A DNA stretch of 64,000 nt from Myrmaecium sp. VS I D KN 1 (lineage: Eukaryota > Ascomycota > Dothideomycetes > Valsariales > Valsariaceae): assembly GCA_019775845.1 (NCBI GenBank), contig JADQAV010000069.1, positions 49,232 through 113,231 of the forward strand. Reading direction: 5' to 3'. Position 1 is the stretch's first letter; every line of letters starts with the position of its first letter. The notes beneath the pieces were generated by a model. The model ran no database searches. It was not told the origin of the DNA and worked only from the letters and a program-made list of their open reading frames with translations. Shown here piece by piece: positions 11,772 through 63,946 of this stretch. A program made the translations under genes and the position numbers.

Positions 11772-13976
11772 TTAATCCCTCCAAACCTCCAACCCCCTAA
11801 GCAAACAGCCCTCCTCCGCACCCGACACGCCCTGTCGCTCAATCAACTCACCCACAACCGTGACCTCCTCACCAGCCTCCCGCAGCACCGCCGTCGCCTC
11901 CTCAACCTTGCTCTTCTCCACCACAAGCACCATACCCAGACCGGTGTTCCAAGTGCGGGCGAACTCCTCCGCGCGCACGCCGCCAGCGCGGCGCAACCAG
12001 GTGAGCACGTCCGGCACGCGCCAGGCGCCACATTCAACCGCGGCGGCGAGGTGCTTAGGCAGCATGCGGGGGATGTTGTCCGTCAGGCCGCCGCCGGTGA
12101 TGTGCGCCATGCCCTTGAGCAGATCCTTGCGCACGGCCGCCAGCAAGCTCTTGACGTAGATGCGCGTGGGCGTGAGCAGGGCCGCGCCGACCGTCTGGTC
12201 GCGCGCCCACGGCGCCGGGTCCGTGTACTTGAGCCCCTCCCGCTCGACGATCTTCCGGATGAGCGAGTAGCCGTTGGAATGCGGCCCGTTTGAGGCCAGC
12301 CCCAGCAGCACGTCGCCCGCGGCCATCGCCTCCTTGTCCGGCAACACCTTCTGCCCGCGTGCGATGGCGCCGATCGCGCACCCGCCCGCGTCGTAGTCGC
12401 CCGGCGCATACATGCCCGGCATCTCTGCAGTCTCGCCGCCCACGAGAGCGCAGCCCGCCTGTCGACAGCCCTCCGCGATGCCGGACACGAACGCGACCGT
12501 GCTCTCGAGCTCGAGCTTCGAGGTGGCGTAGTAGTCGAGGAAAGAGAGGGGCTCGGCACCCTGAACGACGAGGTCATTGACGTTCATCGCCACCAGGTCG
12601 ATGCCCACTGTGTCGTGCTTCTCCGTCGCGAAAGCAATCTTGAGCTTGGTGCCGATGCCATCGATAGCTTGGACAAGGATTGGGGGCTCCGTGTAGCCAG
12701 CGGCGGCGAGGTCGAGGGACCCGCCGAAACCGCCGATCTCTGCGTCGGCGCCAGGACGGCGGGTAGAAGCAACCAGGGGCTTGATGCGCTGGACGAGCTC
12801 GTTACCAGCATCGATGGAGACACCGGCGTCCGCGTAGGTGAGGCCGGACGAAGATGCGGCTGTCGGGGCGGAGGTGTGGGTGACGGTAGTACCGTCTTCG
12901 GCCGGGTGGAGAAGTTGCCACGTGCACTTGATGCCCTTGGCGGCGAACTGGTCGATGAGGTTGGAGGCGATGGAGTCGAAGTTGGAGGTAGCAAGGGCGA
13001 GGATGGTGGGGCCGGCGCCGGAGAGACAGATGCCCAGGAGGCCGGGATGGGTCTTGGGGGTCATGGACTGGAGAATCTCCGTGAGGCCGGGGATGAGGCC
13101 CTTACGGTAAGGCTGGTGCACCTTGTCTTGCATGGAGAGGTAGATGAACTCGGGGTCTGGCGGTGATTCACCGAGGGCGATAGGAAGGAGAGCGATTCTT
13201 TGGAGGTTGAAGACAACATCAGCCCGAGCGTATTGCTTGGGCAGAACCTCTCGCGCCTTCGCAGTGGGAACCTCGAACTGGGGGATAATGGCAATGCATT
13301 GGATTTCCGGTGCCCACTTGAACTTGTGGTAGTGACCGATGTTGAGCGGGGGCTCTGGGGGATTGTGGCCGGTATCCACACCTCCAGCTGGCTCGGGGAG
13401 AACTTCGCTGAGCGGGATCTCCAGGCGCTCGGAATCCTTGGGGTCGAGCTCGTTCAGGTATGTACCGACGAATCCACCATACAGCGCCGCAGCAACGTTA
13501 TCGGGATGTCTCTCGACCATGAGACAGTAGTCGAGCAGGCGGGCTTTGGAGAGACCGAGCTTGCCGACCTCGTTGGCAAGAGTAACACCGGCAACGACTG
13601 CGGCGCCGGAGCTTCCAAGGCCTCGGCCAAGGGGGATGGGGTTCTTGATGTGAACATGCGTTTCCACCTGCGGGTTCAATTAGGAGTGGCCGATGTGATG
13701 TTGAGCGGGGTAGCCTACGGGGAAAGCGCGCTGGTTGTGACAGCGTAGGACATAGAGAGCGACGCGTGTGATAAGGTTCGCCTGGGGATCGAGGCTGGGA
13801 AAGGGGGCCTCGCCTTCGTAGGTGACGCGGCAGTTCAATGGCAGGTCGGAGGTGGGCTTCGCGGTGATGGTGACATGGAGTTCGAGGTAGATGGAGAGGG
13901 CCAGGCCGATGACATCGAAGCCAGGGCCAATGTTGGCAGACGAACAGGGCGCCCTGATGAGAAAGGAGGAGGACAT
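11772..13976 (-). CDS. Homoserine kinase-AIR synthase fusion protein
   Basis: Predicted bifunctional 717-aa protein. Exon 1 is 13976-13719 (86 codons) and exon 2 is 13667-11772; the 51-nt intron (GTAGGC..CTAAT..GCAG) joins AFP to VETHVHIKN exactly as homoserine kinases read. Residues 1 to about 350 form a full GHMP-family homoserine kinase (ATP + homoserine to O-phosphohomoserine, threonine pathway). It shows [18 protein letters not shown] (residues 10-27), [12 protein letters not shown] (98-109), [14 protein letters not shown] and [10 protein letters not shown] near residue 300. A linker of about 15 residues rich in Thr/Ala/Ser leads to residues 361-717, a full PurM-type AIR synthase (FGAM + ATP to AIR, purine pathway). 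There I see [43 protein letters not shown] near 496, [11 protein letters not shown] and [14 protein letters not shown]. Fungal AIR synthase is normally the C-terminal half of ADE5,7 with GAR synthetase; no GAR synthetase is encoded here. The joining sequence is uninterrupted exon, so the fusion does not depend on a splice prediction. Confidence 0.92.
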
Positions 13977-14618
13977 GGCGGAGGAGCTGCCGACCGTGAA
14001 GAGTGGCAGCGGAGAGAGAGGAGGCGGTGGTGGTGCAGTCTCGTTGTCTCTGCGGGAGAGCGCGAGAGGTGACTGACTCTGACTTGACTCCCACCCTTAT
14101 TTCCCTTAATTTTTTCGAGCGCCGGCCGATTTCGCGGGGGTTGGCGGGGTCTGGCATGATCCTGGCAGCCTTGTGGCCTGGTGGCCTGATGAGCTGATCC
14201 AAGGACTGCTCTTGTTGCTCAGAGAGGTAATCGCACGTGCTTTTATGCCTGAGGCATCAGAGGTCACTGCACTGCCCTGGTAGTACTTACATCATCATCG
14301 CAAGGAGGAGTCGCGGCGAGCGCACCTGGTGAACGAACCACCTCAGTACCGACCCTCCTTACGTGATCTATTGACGACTCCGAGTATTCTTACCATCCCA
14401 CTGCCCAACGGCTTGGTTTATATCTTCCTTCATCCCCTTTCATCCACGTCCCCGGCACAACTGTATCACTAGTTATCCTCGATCTTCTATCGAACAACCC
14501 ACCCGCTCAACCGAAACTCCTCCCCTCCGTTCCAGGCAACGCATCGCCCTCGTGCATTCCGACCACCACAGGAGCCCGAGTCCGAGTCCTTGGAGACTGC
14601 GGTGGATGATATACAGCC
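13977..14618. promoter_or_regulatory. Bidirectional promoter of fusion and Mg transporter genes
   Basis: This 642-bp spacer separates the divergent fusion gene and CorA-type transporter gene. It contains no supported ORF. A 5' leader rich in C and T precedes the transporter start (14400-14530). Confidence 0.6.
14074..14090. promoter_or_regulatory. Paired TGACTC (Gcn4/CPC1-like) sites
   Basis: Two TGACTC hexamers at 14074-14079 and 14085-14090, 11 bp apart, lie about 100 bp upstream of the fusion gene start. TGACTC is the core of the TGACTCA element bound by Gcn4/CPC1/CpcA bZIP factors in the general amino acid control. Neither copy has the final A. In yeast the factor controls both amino-acid and some purine genes, which would suit a threonine/purine fusion. 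This is a motif match only. Confidence 0.35.
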
Positions 14619-17272
14619 ATGCCTCCCAAAAGCGATGAAAGGTTATCACAGCCGGAGCCGTCGCAATTCGCCAACAATACATTCGCGGGTGCTGTTGCTG
14701 GCAGCTCTCACGCAGGCTCGAGTTCCGGGGGAGCCAAGAAGAAAAGACATCGAGCGGGCAAGAAGAGACGGAACAGACGCCAGTCGTTTGCAGCACCTTC
14801 GGATACCGCAGGTGAGGAGGCTCTGCCAGAACGTCCAACTCTAGAGAATGCGCCTGGCTCGTCGTCGCGCTCTCGGTTCTACCGTCTTGGACAAGCCAAA
14901 GGAAGCAATACCAGTTTGGAAAGCGAAGCACTACTAGACCATCGGTAAGTCTGCTGAGTTCGGCCTGCCGTAGCGCCCTCTGATGAGTAAAAAGCGACCA
15001 AGCGCCTATACCGCCCCGTAGACAAAGTATCCAGCATAGTCCCAGAGTTAGCCAGTCTTTCGTGTCCAAGCACACTCCAAACCGTCCTTCAACAGCAGCT
15101 TATCCTTTCCCGGCTCTTCAACCTCGTTCAAAGTTATCACAAACAAGAAGATATTCCGATGATGATGATTCGGATAGAGTCACAGACAGAACGCCGCTTA
15201 TAAGCACCTCTCGGGAGAGTGCCACGAAGCTCTCCGGTAGCTATAGTGGCATGTCGCGCCCATCCACCGGAGGCCGCACCAGGGGCAGCAGACGGAACTC
15301 CGTCGGTTCCACCAACAGCCGAAAGAAGAGAACCGTCTATGACGCTCAACATGACTTCCCGACTCCCGACTACAATTACGACGTGAACAACCCGCCTTCG
15401 GTTCCAGGAAGTCCAATCTTGGGCCCGGACATGGGCTACGACGATGTCATGCTTACCGGAGGAGATATCACGCGCTCGCCGCCCCCTGAGGGAGGGAGAG
15501 GATCTCGGGACGCGTACATTGACATTGACGGTGACAGTAAGAATCCAAACGATGCGGAGTCGATGCCGCCCTCTCCACGAGAAAGCCCAAGCGAGGGAAG
15601 GCGGAGGGCGACCGTCGCCCATCCGGCCGAAGTCGACGTATGCTTCCCGCAGGAGGGAATGTCTGAGATCGGCCCCGACGATTTTGTGCAGCGTCAGGAA
15701 AGTGCAGAAGACCGACCGCGACGGAGGAGGGCCAGGGTATGGCCTGATTTGTCGGTACTCGAAGAGTGGGCAACAGAAGAGAAGGAGCAGCGTACAATCG
15801 AAGAGATACGTGTCAGGAAGGTCAGCGAGCCTATCATGGTGGGCGGGCGCCTGCGGCCGCAAAAGCAGGTCTGGCATCGCGAGGACGAAGACGCACCGTT
15901 CCGGTTCACCTACTTCAACGAGGAGTTCCAGAGCACCATTCACAGCAGGAGCATCTCGGATTTGGTACAGACTGGACAAACCTTCCGTGACTTGTTCATT
16001 CCAGAGCCGCCAGTCCTATCCGATAGCGAATCGGAGGACGAGGACGACGAAGATCACCATCAGCCGGGCCGAGACAGTGGCCTTGATCGCAAGAGCTCGG
16101 CAGCTCCTTCGACCAACGAGAACTCCCGCTCCGCGACTCGTCAATCATTCCACATTGCCGCGGAAGGGAAGAACCCATCTTCCGCTGAACAGACCGCTTC
16201 AACCAGCCCGACCGCAACACCTAGACCCAAGCGGTACGGGCCTCGCCCTGTCTTCTGGCTGGATGTACTCTCCCCCACCGATGCCGAGATGCGCGTGTTA
16301 TCGAAGACGTTTGGCATCCACCCGTTGACGGCCGAAGACATCATGATGCAGGAAGCTCGCGAAAAGGTCGAGCTCTTCCGCAACTACTACTTCGTCAACT
16401 ACCGCTCCTTCGAACAGGACGTCACCCGTTCCGACTACCTCGAGCCCGTCAATATGTACGTCATCGTCTTCCGAGAAGGCGTCATCTCCTTCCACTTCTC
16501 CCTCACCCCGCACCCGGCCAACGTGCGCCGCCGCATCCGCCAGCTGTCGGATTACCTTATCTTATCCTCCGATTGGATCTCTTATGCAATTATCGACGAC
16601 ATCACCGACGTCTACGCACCCCTCATTGAGCGCATCGAGGACGAGGTGGACGACATCGACGACGCCATCCTCCGCCTGCACTCCAGTGTCGAAAATACTG
16701 ATACCAAGCCACGGGAGTATGGGAAAGAGAAGGACTTGGAATACGAGAAGCGATCCGAGTCGGGCAACGACGGCACGACGGCGGAGTCGGGCGGGGACAT
16801 GCTGCGGCGGGTCGGCGAGTGCCGCAAGAAGGTCATGGGCCTGTACCGGCTGCTGGGCAACAAGGCGGACGTGATCAAGGGGTTCGCGAAGCGGTGCAAC
16901 GAGCAGTGGGAGGTGGCGCCCCGGTCGGAGATTGGGCTGTACCTCGGCGACATCCAAGACCACATCGTGACGATGACGGGCAACCTGTCGCACTACGAGA
17001 ACCTGCTCAGCCGGGCGCACAGCAACTACCTCGCCCAGATCAACATCCGCATGAACGAGCGGGCCGAGAAGACCAACGACGTGCTCGGCAAGCTCACCGT
17101 CCTCGGCACCATCGTCCTGCCCATGAACATCGTCACCGGCATGTGGGGCATGAACGTCATGGTCCCCGGCCAGGACGTCGGCAACCTCTGGTGGTTCGGC
17201 GGCATCACCAGCTTCCTCCTCATCTTCGGCATCGTCTGCTTCATCTGGGCGAAGAGATACGTTGGGTTCTAA
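14619..17272 (+). CDS. CorA-type Mg2+ transporter (Alr1/Mnr2 family)
   Basis: Two-exon gene, exons 14619-14944 and 15022-17272, joined through GTAAGT..CCGTAG, giving 858 aa. The long N-terminal cytosolic half is Ser/Arg/acidic-rich with a Lys/Arg cluster (KKKRHRAGKKRRNRR) and probable phosphorylation sites. The CorA core starts near residue 500 (PVFWLDVLSPTDAEMRVLSK, FGIHPLTAEDIMMQEAREKV). It continues through the long helices to two C-terminal membrane segments. The first ends in the diagnostic G818-M-N820 motif (GMWGMNV), and the second ends near the C-terminus (ITSFLLIFGIVCFIWAKRY). This topology matches fungal Alr1 (plasma membrane) and Mnr2 (vacuolar) magnesium channels. The long N-terminus and HPLTAEDI motif fit either, so the location is not decided. 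It shares its promoter region with the fusion gene to the left. Confidence 0.93.
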
Positions 17273-62065: not shown

Positions 62066-63946
62066 ATGTCCGCTGCATTCGACCCCGAAGAGAATGAAAA
62101 GAACATCACCATCTCCGAAGCAGAGCCTGGCAGTGGCTTGAACTCCGTCTCCTCCCTGGTGGACGACAACTATGCCACATACAAGCAGCATGAGGGTGCG
62201 CAGATCGACGCGGATGAGGCCAAAAAGGTTCTGAGGAAGATCGATTTGCGCATTGTGCCTCTGCTCTTTTTCGGCTACCTCATACAGTATTTGGATAAGA
62301 ACGGCCTGAACTATGCGAGTGTATATGGACTACAGAGTGGAACACACCTGCATGGGCAACAATATTCCTGGCTCAGTATGTGTAGAGTTGTGTGCCAGCA
62401 ACGACCACGGCTAATGATCCACAGGTTCCATCTTCTACTTCGGATACCTCGTCGCGCAGTACCCTTCCGGCTACCTCTTGCAAAGACTACCAATTGCCAA
62501 ATTTCTCGGAGCAACGACAATAGGTCAGTGCGATCCCATCGAGAATGGAGGAATAACAGCTAAAGTATTCGAAAAGGATGGGGCATTCTCCTCATGACCA
62601 CTCCTGCCTGCAAAAACTTCGCTGGAATCGCCACCAACAGATTTCTCCTGGGAGTCTTGGAGGCGGCCGTCAACCCGGGCTACGTGCTGATGATGGGCAT
62701 GTGGTACACTTCTGCCGAGCAGCCCCTCCGCCTCGAAGCATACTATTGCACCAACGGCGTCGCTACCATGTTCGGCGGGTGAGTCAAGCAACCCCTGGCC
62801 CTCCTATCATGAAAACTAAGTCTCTTCTCCCCAGCCTGATTGGTTATGCCGTCGGCCACATCACCACCGGCCTCCCCAAATGGATGTACGTCTTCCTCAT
62901 CTTCGGCGCCTGCAGCATCGCCATCGGCATCGCCACCATCCTCTTCCTCCCCGACCTGCCCTCGACCGCCAGCTTCCTCAGCCCGCGCGAGCGCGGCGTC
63001 GCCGTCCACCGCGTCGCCGGCAACCGCCAGGGCATCAAGAACCACCACTTCAAAAAGGACCAGGCGTGGCAAACGGCCAAGGACCCCAAGACCTGGATCC
63101 TCTTCGTCATGGCGGTCGGCGCGCAGGTGCCAAACTCGGCCCTGACGAGCGTAAGTCGCAAGACCCCACGGCAGCCACCCCCCCAGCACGTTGCTAACGT
63201 CCGTCGTCCACCTACCTAGTTCACCTCCCTCATCGTCAAATCCTTCGGCTTCTCCACCCTGGGCACGCAATACCTGCAGATCCCCGGCGGGGCCGTGCAA
63301 TTCCTCGCCCTCCTCGGCGGCGGGCTCGTCTGCACGCGCTGGCCCAACAGCCGCTGCCTCACCATGACGGTCGCCAACCTGATCTGCATCGTCGGCGCGG
63401 CGCTGCTGGTCGGGCTGCCGGAGTCCAACCGATGGGGCCGCCTGGTCGCGCTCTGGCTCTGCTTCTTCCAGGGCCTCGGCTTCAGCATGAGCCTCACCAT
63501 GATCAGCACCAACGTCGCCGGCTGGACGAAGAAGCAGCTCACCGCCGCCGTCGTCTTCACCGGGTACTGCGTCGGCAACATCATCGGCCCGCAGACGTTC
63601 CGGAGCGCCGAGGCCGCGACGGGGTATCGGAGTGCTTATGTGGCGTATGTGTTCTTACTTCCCCCTCCCCCCTTGCTACCCTCAACATAAACATAAGAAG
63701 CTGGTCGCTGACGGATTTTTCCTTCTTAGCATGTTGGTCGGCTATTCCGTCAAGCTGACGATGGTCCTACTACTGTACGCGTACATGTATCGGGAGAACC
63801 GGCGACGGGATCGGGCCGCGGCGGCGCAGGCGGCAGGCACCGAGGGCTGGCCGACGACCAGGGAAGAGGAGGAACGGCGAGCGGTGGAGATGGGCATGCG
63901 GGATCTGACGGAGTTGGAGAACCCGGGGTTTCGGTATATTTTGTGA
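62066..63946 (+). CDS. Dal5/Tna1-family MFS permease
   Basis: Second ACS-family (allantoate/nicotinate type) plasma-membrane symporter in the window; substrate unknown. Six exons: 62066-62375, 62425-62523, 62577-62778, 62835-63150, 63220-63644 and 63730-63946, all GT..AG with frame kept, giving 522 aa. KIDLRIVPLLFFGYLIQYLD and LNYASVYGL form the first membrane segment and family signature. IFYFGYLVAQYPSGYLLQRL spans TM2, RFLLGVLEAAVNPGYVLMM TM4, and FLPDLPSTASFLSPRERGVA the central loop. WILFVMAVGAQVPNSALTSF starts the C-terminal bundle. The last exon ends in an Arg/Glu/Ala-rich cytosolic tail, ENPGFRYIL, a common end in this family. It shares little sequence with the permease at the left end beyond family motifs, so it is not a recent duplicate. 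Confidence 0.9.

What the first reader, a model, noticed from the sequence alone, without database searches (positions are those of the whole stretch)
11772..13976. Homoserine kinase fused in frame to AIR synthase
The sequence shows one open exon carrying the end of a complete homoserine kinase, a linker of about 15 residues, and a complete PurM-type AIR synthase; all signature motifs of both enzymes are present. Known fungal organisation is homoserine kinase alone (Thr1) and AIR synthase as the C-terminal half of ADE5,7 with GAR synthetase. I know of no described threonine-purine fusion. Inference: the AIR synthase half could have separated from, or been copied from, an ADE5,7 gene. The fusion could couple threonine and purine flux, or simply share expression. 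If the genome also has an intact ADE5,7, the fused domain is a second AIR synthase; if not, the purine pathway has been rewired.
Basis: partly seen in the sequence, partly recalled or inferred. Interest (0 to 1): 0.9.

Follow-up and report, generated by a model that had tools for sequence, protein, structure and literature searches.

The report
Threonine enzyme fused to purine enzyme
In this fungus, and in a large group of related moulds, one gene makes a single protein that joins an enzyme of threonine synthesis to an enzyme of purine synthesis, because the usual two-part fungal purine gene was split and one half was attached to a new partner.

Summary
A two-exon gene at 11772-13976 (-) encodes 717 residues: complete homoserine kinase (HK), a 13-residue linker, complete AIR synthase (AIRS). 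The 120 listed best database hits all share the architecture; all 8 named taxa whose lineage I looked up are Dothideomycetes. This assembly has no ADE5,7: the fused AIRS and HK are the only copies found, and GAR synthetase is a free gene that stops where the GARS-AIRS linker of ADE5,7 begins. The AIRS half nests inside fungal ADE5,7 AIRS and is not bacterial, so ADE5,7 was split and AIRS joined to THR1. Two further points: free THR1 and ADE5,7 share a contig in 5 of 10 comparable taxa (four Leotiomycetes, one geoglossomycete; consecutive locus tags in one), hinting at an origin from neighbours; and the HK half of this genome groups with free HKs while its AIRS half groups with fusions, so the halves have conflicting histories. 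Ten searches of an open-access library found no description. Function was not tested and structure prediction never ran. Most likely a working bifunctional enzyme, kept because each half is the sole copy; flux coupling is unproven.

The parts
13719..13976 (-). exon 1: first 86 residues of the homoserine kinase half (ATG at 13976)
   Evidence: aligns with the N-termini of homologs
13668..13718 (-). intron, 51 nt, GT-AG, with an in-frame TAA
   Evidence: six-frame searches report 1 TAA inside the HK match
12882..13667 (-). exon 2, first part: rest of homoserine kinase (GHMP kinase, thrB/THR1)
   Evidence: (TIGR00191, 322.1 bits, cut-off 168.25)
12843..12881 (-). linker, residues 349-361
   Evidence: free HKs end here and the AIRS homology starts directly after it
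11772..12842 (-). exon 2, second part: AIR synthase (PurM-type), stop TAA at 11772-11774
   Evidence: the same half of the homolog P0001 matches solved AIR synthases such as 5vk4, 7lvp, 1cli and 2v9y
14074..14090 (+). two TGACTC hexamers 98 and 109 nt upstream of the ATG, possible Gcn4/CpcA- or Bas1-like sites (site names recalled)
   Evidence: 0.17 expected in 643 nt from the window average; weak, no comparable pattern in the other pathway loci looked at

Best explanation
A bifunctional enzyme, HK-AIRS. Shown by sequence: the fungal ADE5,7 (GARS-AIRS) organisation is split at its inter-domain linker; GARS is a free gene, and AIRS is joined in frame to the C-terminus of homoserine kinase; each half is the only copy of its enzyme found in this assembly. 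Inferred: both active sites work, HK making O-phosphohomoserine for threonine and AIRS making AIR for purines, with no channelling because the reactions are not neighbours in a pathway. Inferred origin: THR1 and ADE5,7 were chromosomal neighbours in an ancestor; after ADE5,7 was duplicated, one copy kept GARS only and the copy beside THR1 lost its GARS part along with the THR1 stop. Once each half was the sole copy, both pathways depended on the joined gene and purifying selection kept it. Shared expression of threonine and purine synthesis is a plausible by-product.
For: One frame, four domain hits. 120 of 120 listed relatives share the architecture; ten of eleven core motifs are intact in 117-121 of 121 fusions, the N-terminal one in 103. 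Own genome: one AIRS N-domain; AIRS_C elsewhere only twice in one 1475-aa frame, read as FGAM synthase; one thrB match over cut-off; GARS only at C7, ending ...RKDIAHRALRK-stop, where ADE5,7 reads RKDIAHRAF + linker; no AIRS relic within the 10 kb fetched around it (best E 2.1). purF, purH, thrC and aspartate kinase are present over cut-off; the other steps were not checked. AIRS halves of 33 fusions form one clade (97/83) inside fungal ADE5,7 AIRS, with alphaproteobacterial PurM outside (100/100). The two residues before the AIRS domain are most often 'EA' in both fusions (59 of 121) and ADE5,7 (75 of 119).
Against: No RNA, protein or enzyme data. HK halves are not one clade (AU p 0.0024; 0% of 200 bootstrap trees), so a single fusion followed by simple descent does not explain the HK half. 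Linkage of THR1 and ADE5,7 was not seen in 5 of 10 taxa, two of them (Xylona, Sarea) in the HK clade nearest the window; order, orientation and distance could not be read, as no fungal DNA outside this genome was available. Free GARS was shown only in this genome, not in other Dothideomycetes.
Confidence: 0.8

Rival explanations
1. The fusion is functional coupling: joining HK to AIRS balances threonine against purine synthesis, for instance because threonine is a source of glycine (threonine aldolase) and glycine is consumed by GARS; the fusion was selected for this.
For: Wide conservation in Dothideomycetes with full-length halves. The glycine link and general amino-acid control of both pathways are recalled, not tested. 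Two TGACTC hexamers near the ATG.
Against: Conservation is equally expected when each half is a sole essential copy. The joined purine step is AIRS, not the glycine-using GARS, which is a separate gene. The TGACTC pattern is not shared closely by the other pathway loci looked at.
Confidence: 0.12
2. Modular history: the fused gene arose once, but its HK half was later exchanged for a free-type HK in the window's lineage and in Aulographum (gene conversion or recombination with a free HK, by a paralog since lost or by transfer). This adds to the best explanation rather than replacing it.
For: Window HK is 82% identical to free HK of Sarea, at most 80% to the 120 listed fusion HKs, while its AIRS is nearest to fusions. 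The HK tree places window and Aulographum with free HKs of Sarea, Xylona and Pseudogymnoascus (100/96). All fusions as one HK clade: p 0.0024; without Aulographum p 0.009, without the window p 0.015, without both p 0.276. The AIRS tree rejects the HK-like placement (p 7e-5) and the HK tree the AIRS-like one (p 0.0175). Eight window residues are free-HK-like and none fusion-like by the cut-offs.
Against: Groups were chosen after seeing the first trees; one gene of 347 columns with weak deep branches, in which the remaining fusions also do not form one branch; free-type residues may be ancestral states retained.
Confidence: 0.35
3. Several independent HK-AIRS fusions: ADE5,7 was split once, leaving free AIRS beside THR1, and the two were joined more than once.
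For: AIRS halves are one clade, HK halves are not.
Against: The junction is much alike: spacing from SGAGPT to the AIRS start is 50-70 residues, median 54, in the 113 of 121 where both patterns were found. No free fungal AIRS was seen, but none was searched for directly.
Confidence: 0.1
4. Annotation or assembly artefact: two genes read as one.
For: No transcript evidence at hand.
Against: The joint lies inside one uninterrupted exon and the same joint occurs in 120 of 120 listed proteins from many contigs and sources.
Confidence: 0.01

Closest known systems
Fungal ADE5,7 (S. pombe ade1, names recalled), GARS-AIRS bifunctional enzyme
   Same: The AIRS half descends from it; the residues before the AIRS start are often kept
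   Different: GARS is absent from the protein and is a free gene in this genome; HK stands in its place
Fungal homoserine kinase THR1 (thrB, TIGR00191)
   Same: Full-length HK at up to 82% identity to free HKs
   Different: Carries a C-terminal AIRS domain; the listed free HKs are 341-510 aa long and show no AIRS domain (the search excluded proteins over 609 aa)
Bacterial PurM and the AIRS domain of vertebrate GART
   Same: Sequence and motifs of AIR synthase
   Different: Bacterial PurM is free and GART is GARS-AIRS plus a transformylase (recalled; P0121 is a named example); neither has HK

Membership tests
Homoserine kinase (thrB/THR1) | match to the curated thrB model | tested here: met
   TIGR00191 322.1 bits, cut-off 168.25
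Homoserine kinase (thrB/THR1) | GHMP ATP-binding motif and C-terminal motif | tested here: met
   PLGRGLGSS and SGAGPT present; aligns to solved homoserine kinases
Homoserine kinase (thrB/THR1) | phosphorylates homoserine | not testable with these tools
   needs an assay
AIR synthase (PurM) | AIRS and AIRS_C domains, full length | tested here: met
   81 and 119 bits over cut-offs 24 and 23.1 in the genome searches;
AIR synthase (PurM) | conserved motifs DGxGTK, VNDLxVQGA, GGETAEM, HITGGG (chosen from the alignment, not from a published list) | tested here: met
   121 of 121 fusions each, window included
AIR synthase (PurM) | converts FGAM to AIR | not testable with these tools
   needs an assay
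ADE5,7 (GARS-AIRS) | GARS domain in the same polypeptide | tested here: not met
   no GARS Pfam hit in exon 2 or in the exon 1 frame; GARS is on another contig

The most novel reading that the evidence does not exclude
A Dothideomycete-wide rewiring in which two unrelated, essential biosynthetic pathways hang on one polypeptide, born from neighbouring THR1 and ADE5,7, with the HK module later swapped in some lineages while the AIRS module stayed; the fusion serves as an enzyme-level link that sets purine synthesis by threonine (glycine-precursor) supply.
Probability: 0.12. Interest if true: 0.85.

Novelty: new variant of a known kind. Interest (0 to 1): 0.6.

Why it matters
A purine gene organisation taken as standard for fungi (ADE5,7) is broken in a class that holds many crop pathogens, and databases hide it under the name of one half. 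The fusion is a candidate shared derived character for the class, a natural case of gene fission plus fusion between pathways that share no step, and a single gene whose removal should cause two auxotrophies at once. The conflict between the two halves makes exchange of a module within a fused essential gene directly testable.

Tried and rejected
Bacterial origin of AIRS: rejected; alphaproteobacterial PurM reaches 62% identity (80 loci kept of a capped list) but falls outside all fungal AIRS. A quick tree with the stickleback sequence (33 fusions, 31 ADE5,7, 16 bacteria, 1 fish) put that long branch among the bacteria; it was dropped with nine bacterial rows and three near-duplicate ADE5,7 rows. 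The trees used 32 of 120 listed fusions plus the window (AIRS), 25 of 120 plus the window (HK), 31 then 28 of 119 ADE5,7 rows, and 25 of 120 free HKs; a quick HK tree with 63 rows agreed on the place of the window.

Intact ADE5,7 elsewhere in the genome: not found. AIRS relic beside free GARS: none. Second HK: the only other thrB match is 22.4 bits, below cut-off; the other four GHMP kinase matches were not identified further.

Promoter link: two TGACTC hexamers, not convincing when other loci of both pathways were looked at by position only.

Relatives in viral contigs: none. Structure prediction: never started, the machine was busy at each of seven calls (45, 49, 58, 70, 73, 75, 82).

Naming the organism: not achieved; that it is a Dothideomycete or a close ally is inferred from the AIRS tree alone and is disputed by the HK half.

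Full report
OBSERVATION. The minus strand of 11772-13679 is one open frame of 635 codons. Pfam finds GHMP_kinases_N, GHMP_kinases_C, AIRS and AIRS_C in it, in that order. Upstream, an exon from the ATG at 13976 to 13719 joins it after a 51-nt GT-AG intron (13668-13718), giving 717 residues. The finding's coordinates are right; the gene has two exons, and the HK-AIRS joint lies inside the second. Linker residues 349-361 lie at 12843-12881.

DISTRIBUTION. A search of 5.8 billion proteins with exon 2 lists 120 best hits; all 120 carry the GHMP_N, AIRS and AIRS_C domains, at 69-76% identity over 98-100% of the query. 8000 candidates reached the threshold but only 120 are listed, so the full range is not known. 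55 rows bear an organism name by my hand count (list typed). I looked up eight of these taxa (Aulographum, Saccharata, Coniosporium, Microthyrium, Rhizodiscina, Oleoguttula, Neophaeotheca, Elasticomyces): eight of eight are Dothideomycetes, from Pleosporomycetidae, Dothideomycetidae and groups of uncertain place. The others, such as Parastagonospora, Venturia, Elsinoe, Phyllosticta and Pseudocercospora, are Dothideomycetes by recall.

THE REST OF THE GENOME. The assembly (25.66 Mb, 66 contigs; completeness not given) has one AIRS N-domain, the fused one. AIRS_C occurs otherwise only twice in one 1475-aa frame, which I read as FGAM synthase. GARS_A is found in one gene, on contig C7, split by an intron; the gene ends in ...RKDIAHRALRK and a stop, just where ADE5,7 proteins pass into the linker before AIRS. 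thrB matches over its cut-off only in the window. purF, purH, thrC and aspartate kinase are present over cut-off; the remaining steps were not checked. So, as far as this assembly goes, purine synthesis depends on the fused AIRS and threonine synthesis on the fused HK.

DO RELATIVES STILL HAVE ADE5,7 OR FREE HK? A query made of this genome's own GARS and AIRS listed 120 proteins: 119 with GARS and AIRS domains and lengths near 780-815, and one fish trifunctional protein. By my count 53 rows bear an organism name (52 fungi and the fish) and 67 do not; no named row is a Dothideomycete (names read; classes looked up for Xylona, Watsoniomyces, Phlyctema, Venustampulla, Glutinoglossum, Xylogone, Sarea and Diplocarpon coronariae; the rest by recall). 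A Dothideomycete ADE5,7 would be expected near the top of this list, so this is strong but, with 67 unnamed rows, not complete. In the AIRS tree the unnamed ADE5,7 rows that I included sat with Leotiomycetes. In the free-HK list (proteins up to 609 aa) no named row of 120 is a Dothideomycete either; about 25 rows there have no name.

ORIGIN OF THE AIRS HALF. Window AIRS is 64-72% identical to fusion AIRS, 60-66% to ADE5,7 AIRS, 53-62% to alphaproteobacterial PurM (the best of a capped list). In a careful tree of 68 rows all 33 fusion AIRS halves form one clade (97/83), inside fungal ADE5,7 AIRS, bacteria outside (100/100). The row next to them there, Pyronema, is a long branch and its place is not to be trusted. 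The two residues before the AIRS domain are most often EA in fusions (59 of 121) and in ADE5,7 (75 of 119). Thus the AIRS half is a piece of fungal ADE5,7.

A POSSIBLE ROUTE. Ten taxa are named in both lists. For Glutinoglossum that contig is only 27,399 bases; in Diplocarpon the tags are PZA11_002542 and PZA11_002543. Four of the five shared contigs, Diplocarpon's included, are megabases long, and there sharing alone says little. In the other five (Xylona, Sarea, Coniochaeta ligniaria, Mycothermus, Xylaria palmicola) the contigs differ; the two Sarea entries may come from different assemblies. Neighbouring THR1 and ADE5,7 would make the fusion easy: duplication of ADE5,7, then loss of AIRS from one copy and of GARS plus the THR1 stop from the copy beside THR1. 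Order and orientation were not visible.

CONFLICT BETWEEN THE HALVES. Window HK is 82% identical to the free HK of Sarea, but 80% at most to the listed fusion HKs. In the careful HK tree (51 rows) the window and Aulographum sit with free HKs of Sarea, Xylona and Pseudogymnoascus (100/96), away from the other fusions; one fusion clade is rejected (p 0.0024). Leaving out both rows removes the rejection (p 0.276), leaving out either alone does not (0.009 and 0.015). Holding the window with the other fusions in the HK tree: p 0.0175; holding the window AIRS with Xylona and Sarea: p 7e-5. The free-type signal runs over most of the half. The groups were picked after seeing the trees, the deep branches are weak, and ancestral states kept in two lineages are not excluded. 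Exchange of the HK module is the simplest reading I have; repeated fusion is another.

FUNCTION. Both halves keep their motifs and align to solved enzymes: the HK half to homoserine kinases and the AIRS half of homolog P0001 to AIR synthases including 1cli (E. coli PurM) and 2v9y (human GART), organisms recalled. I infer two working active sites on a tether of about 13 residues. HK and AIRS share no pathway substrate except ATP and are not successive, so channelling is not expected. Why it is kept is best explained by dependence: each is the sole copy found. Coupling through glycine is possible but untested. Two TGACTC hexamers stand 98 and 109 nt before the ATG; other loci of the two pathways gave no clear pattern.

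LITERATURE. Ten full-text searches of PMC open-access papers listed no paper that appears, from title and start of abstract, to describe such a fusion; I saw search listings only and read no paper. Searches returned three papers holding the terms, on S. aureus, Rhodococcus and maize. Searches listed only part of what matched. Subscription journals are mostly not held, so a description there is possible.

VERDICT. Real, conserved, and a rewiring of a textbook gene organisation; made of known enzymes, hence a new variant of a known kind.

Noticed in passing
G000 contig C57:59124-60512 and 62185-63438 (L097, L098, L102, L103): Threonine synthase and aspartate kinase, two more threonine-pathway genes, have matches about 1.7 kb apart on the same strand.
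   Followed up: partly
P0242, P0260, P0280, P0292, P0300, P0329, P0336, P0349, P0351, P0359: Several free homoserine kinases are named 'Trihydroxynaphthalene reductase' in public records, apparently a spreading misannotation.
   Followed up: no
P0001-P0120: Public names of the fusion are inconsistent (Homoserine kinase, phosphoribosylformylglycinamidine cyclo-ligase-like, ADE1, hypothetical), so annotation pipelines hide one or other enzyme.
   Followed up: partly
window 14987-17272 (+): A long ORF upstream of the fusion gene, on the opposite strand and pointing away from it, ends in a GMN-type motif recalled from CorA-like magnesium transporters; not searched.
   Followed up: no
P0245, P0247: Free homoserine kinase of Pseudogymnoascus (Leotiomycetes) groups with Sarea and Xylona rather than with the other Leotiomycetes in the tree, hinting at transfer or old paralogs among free HKs.
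   Followed up: no
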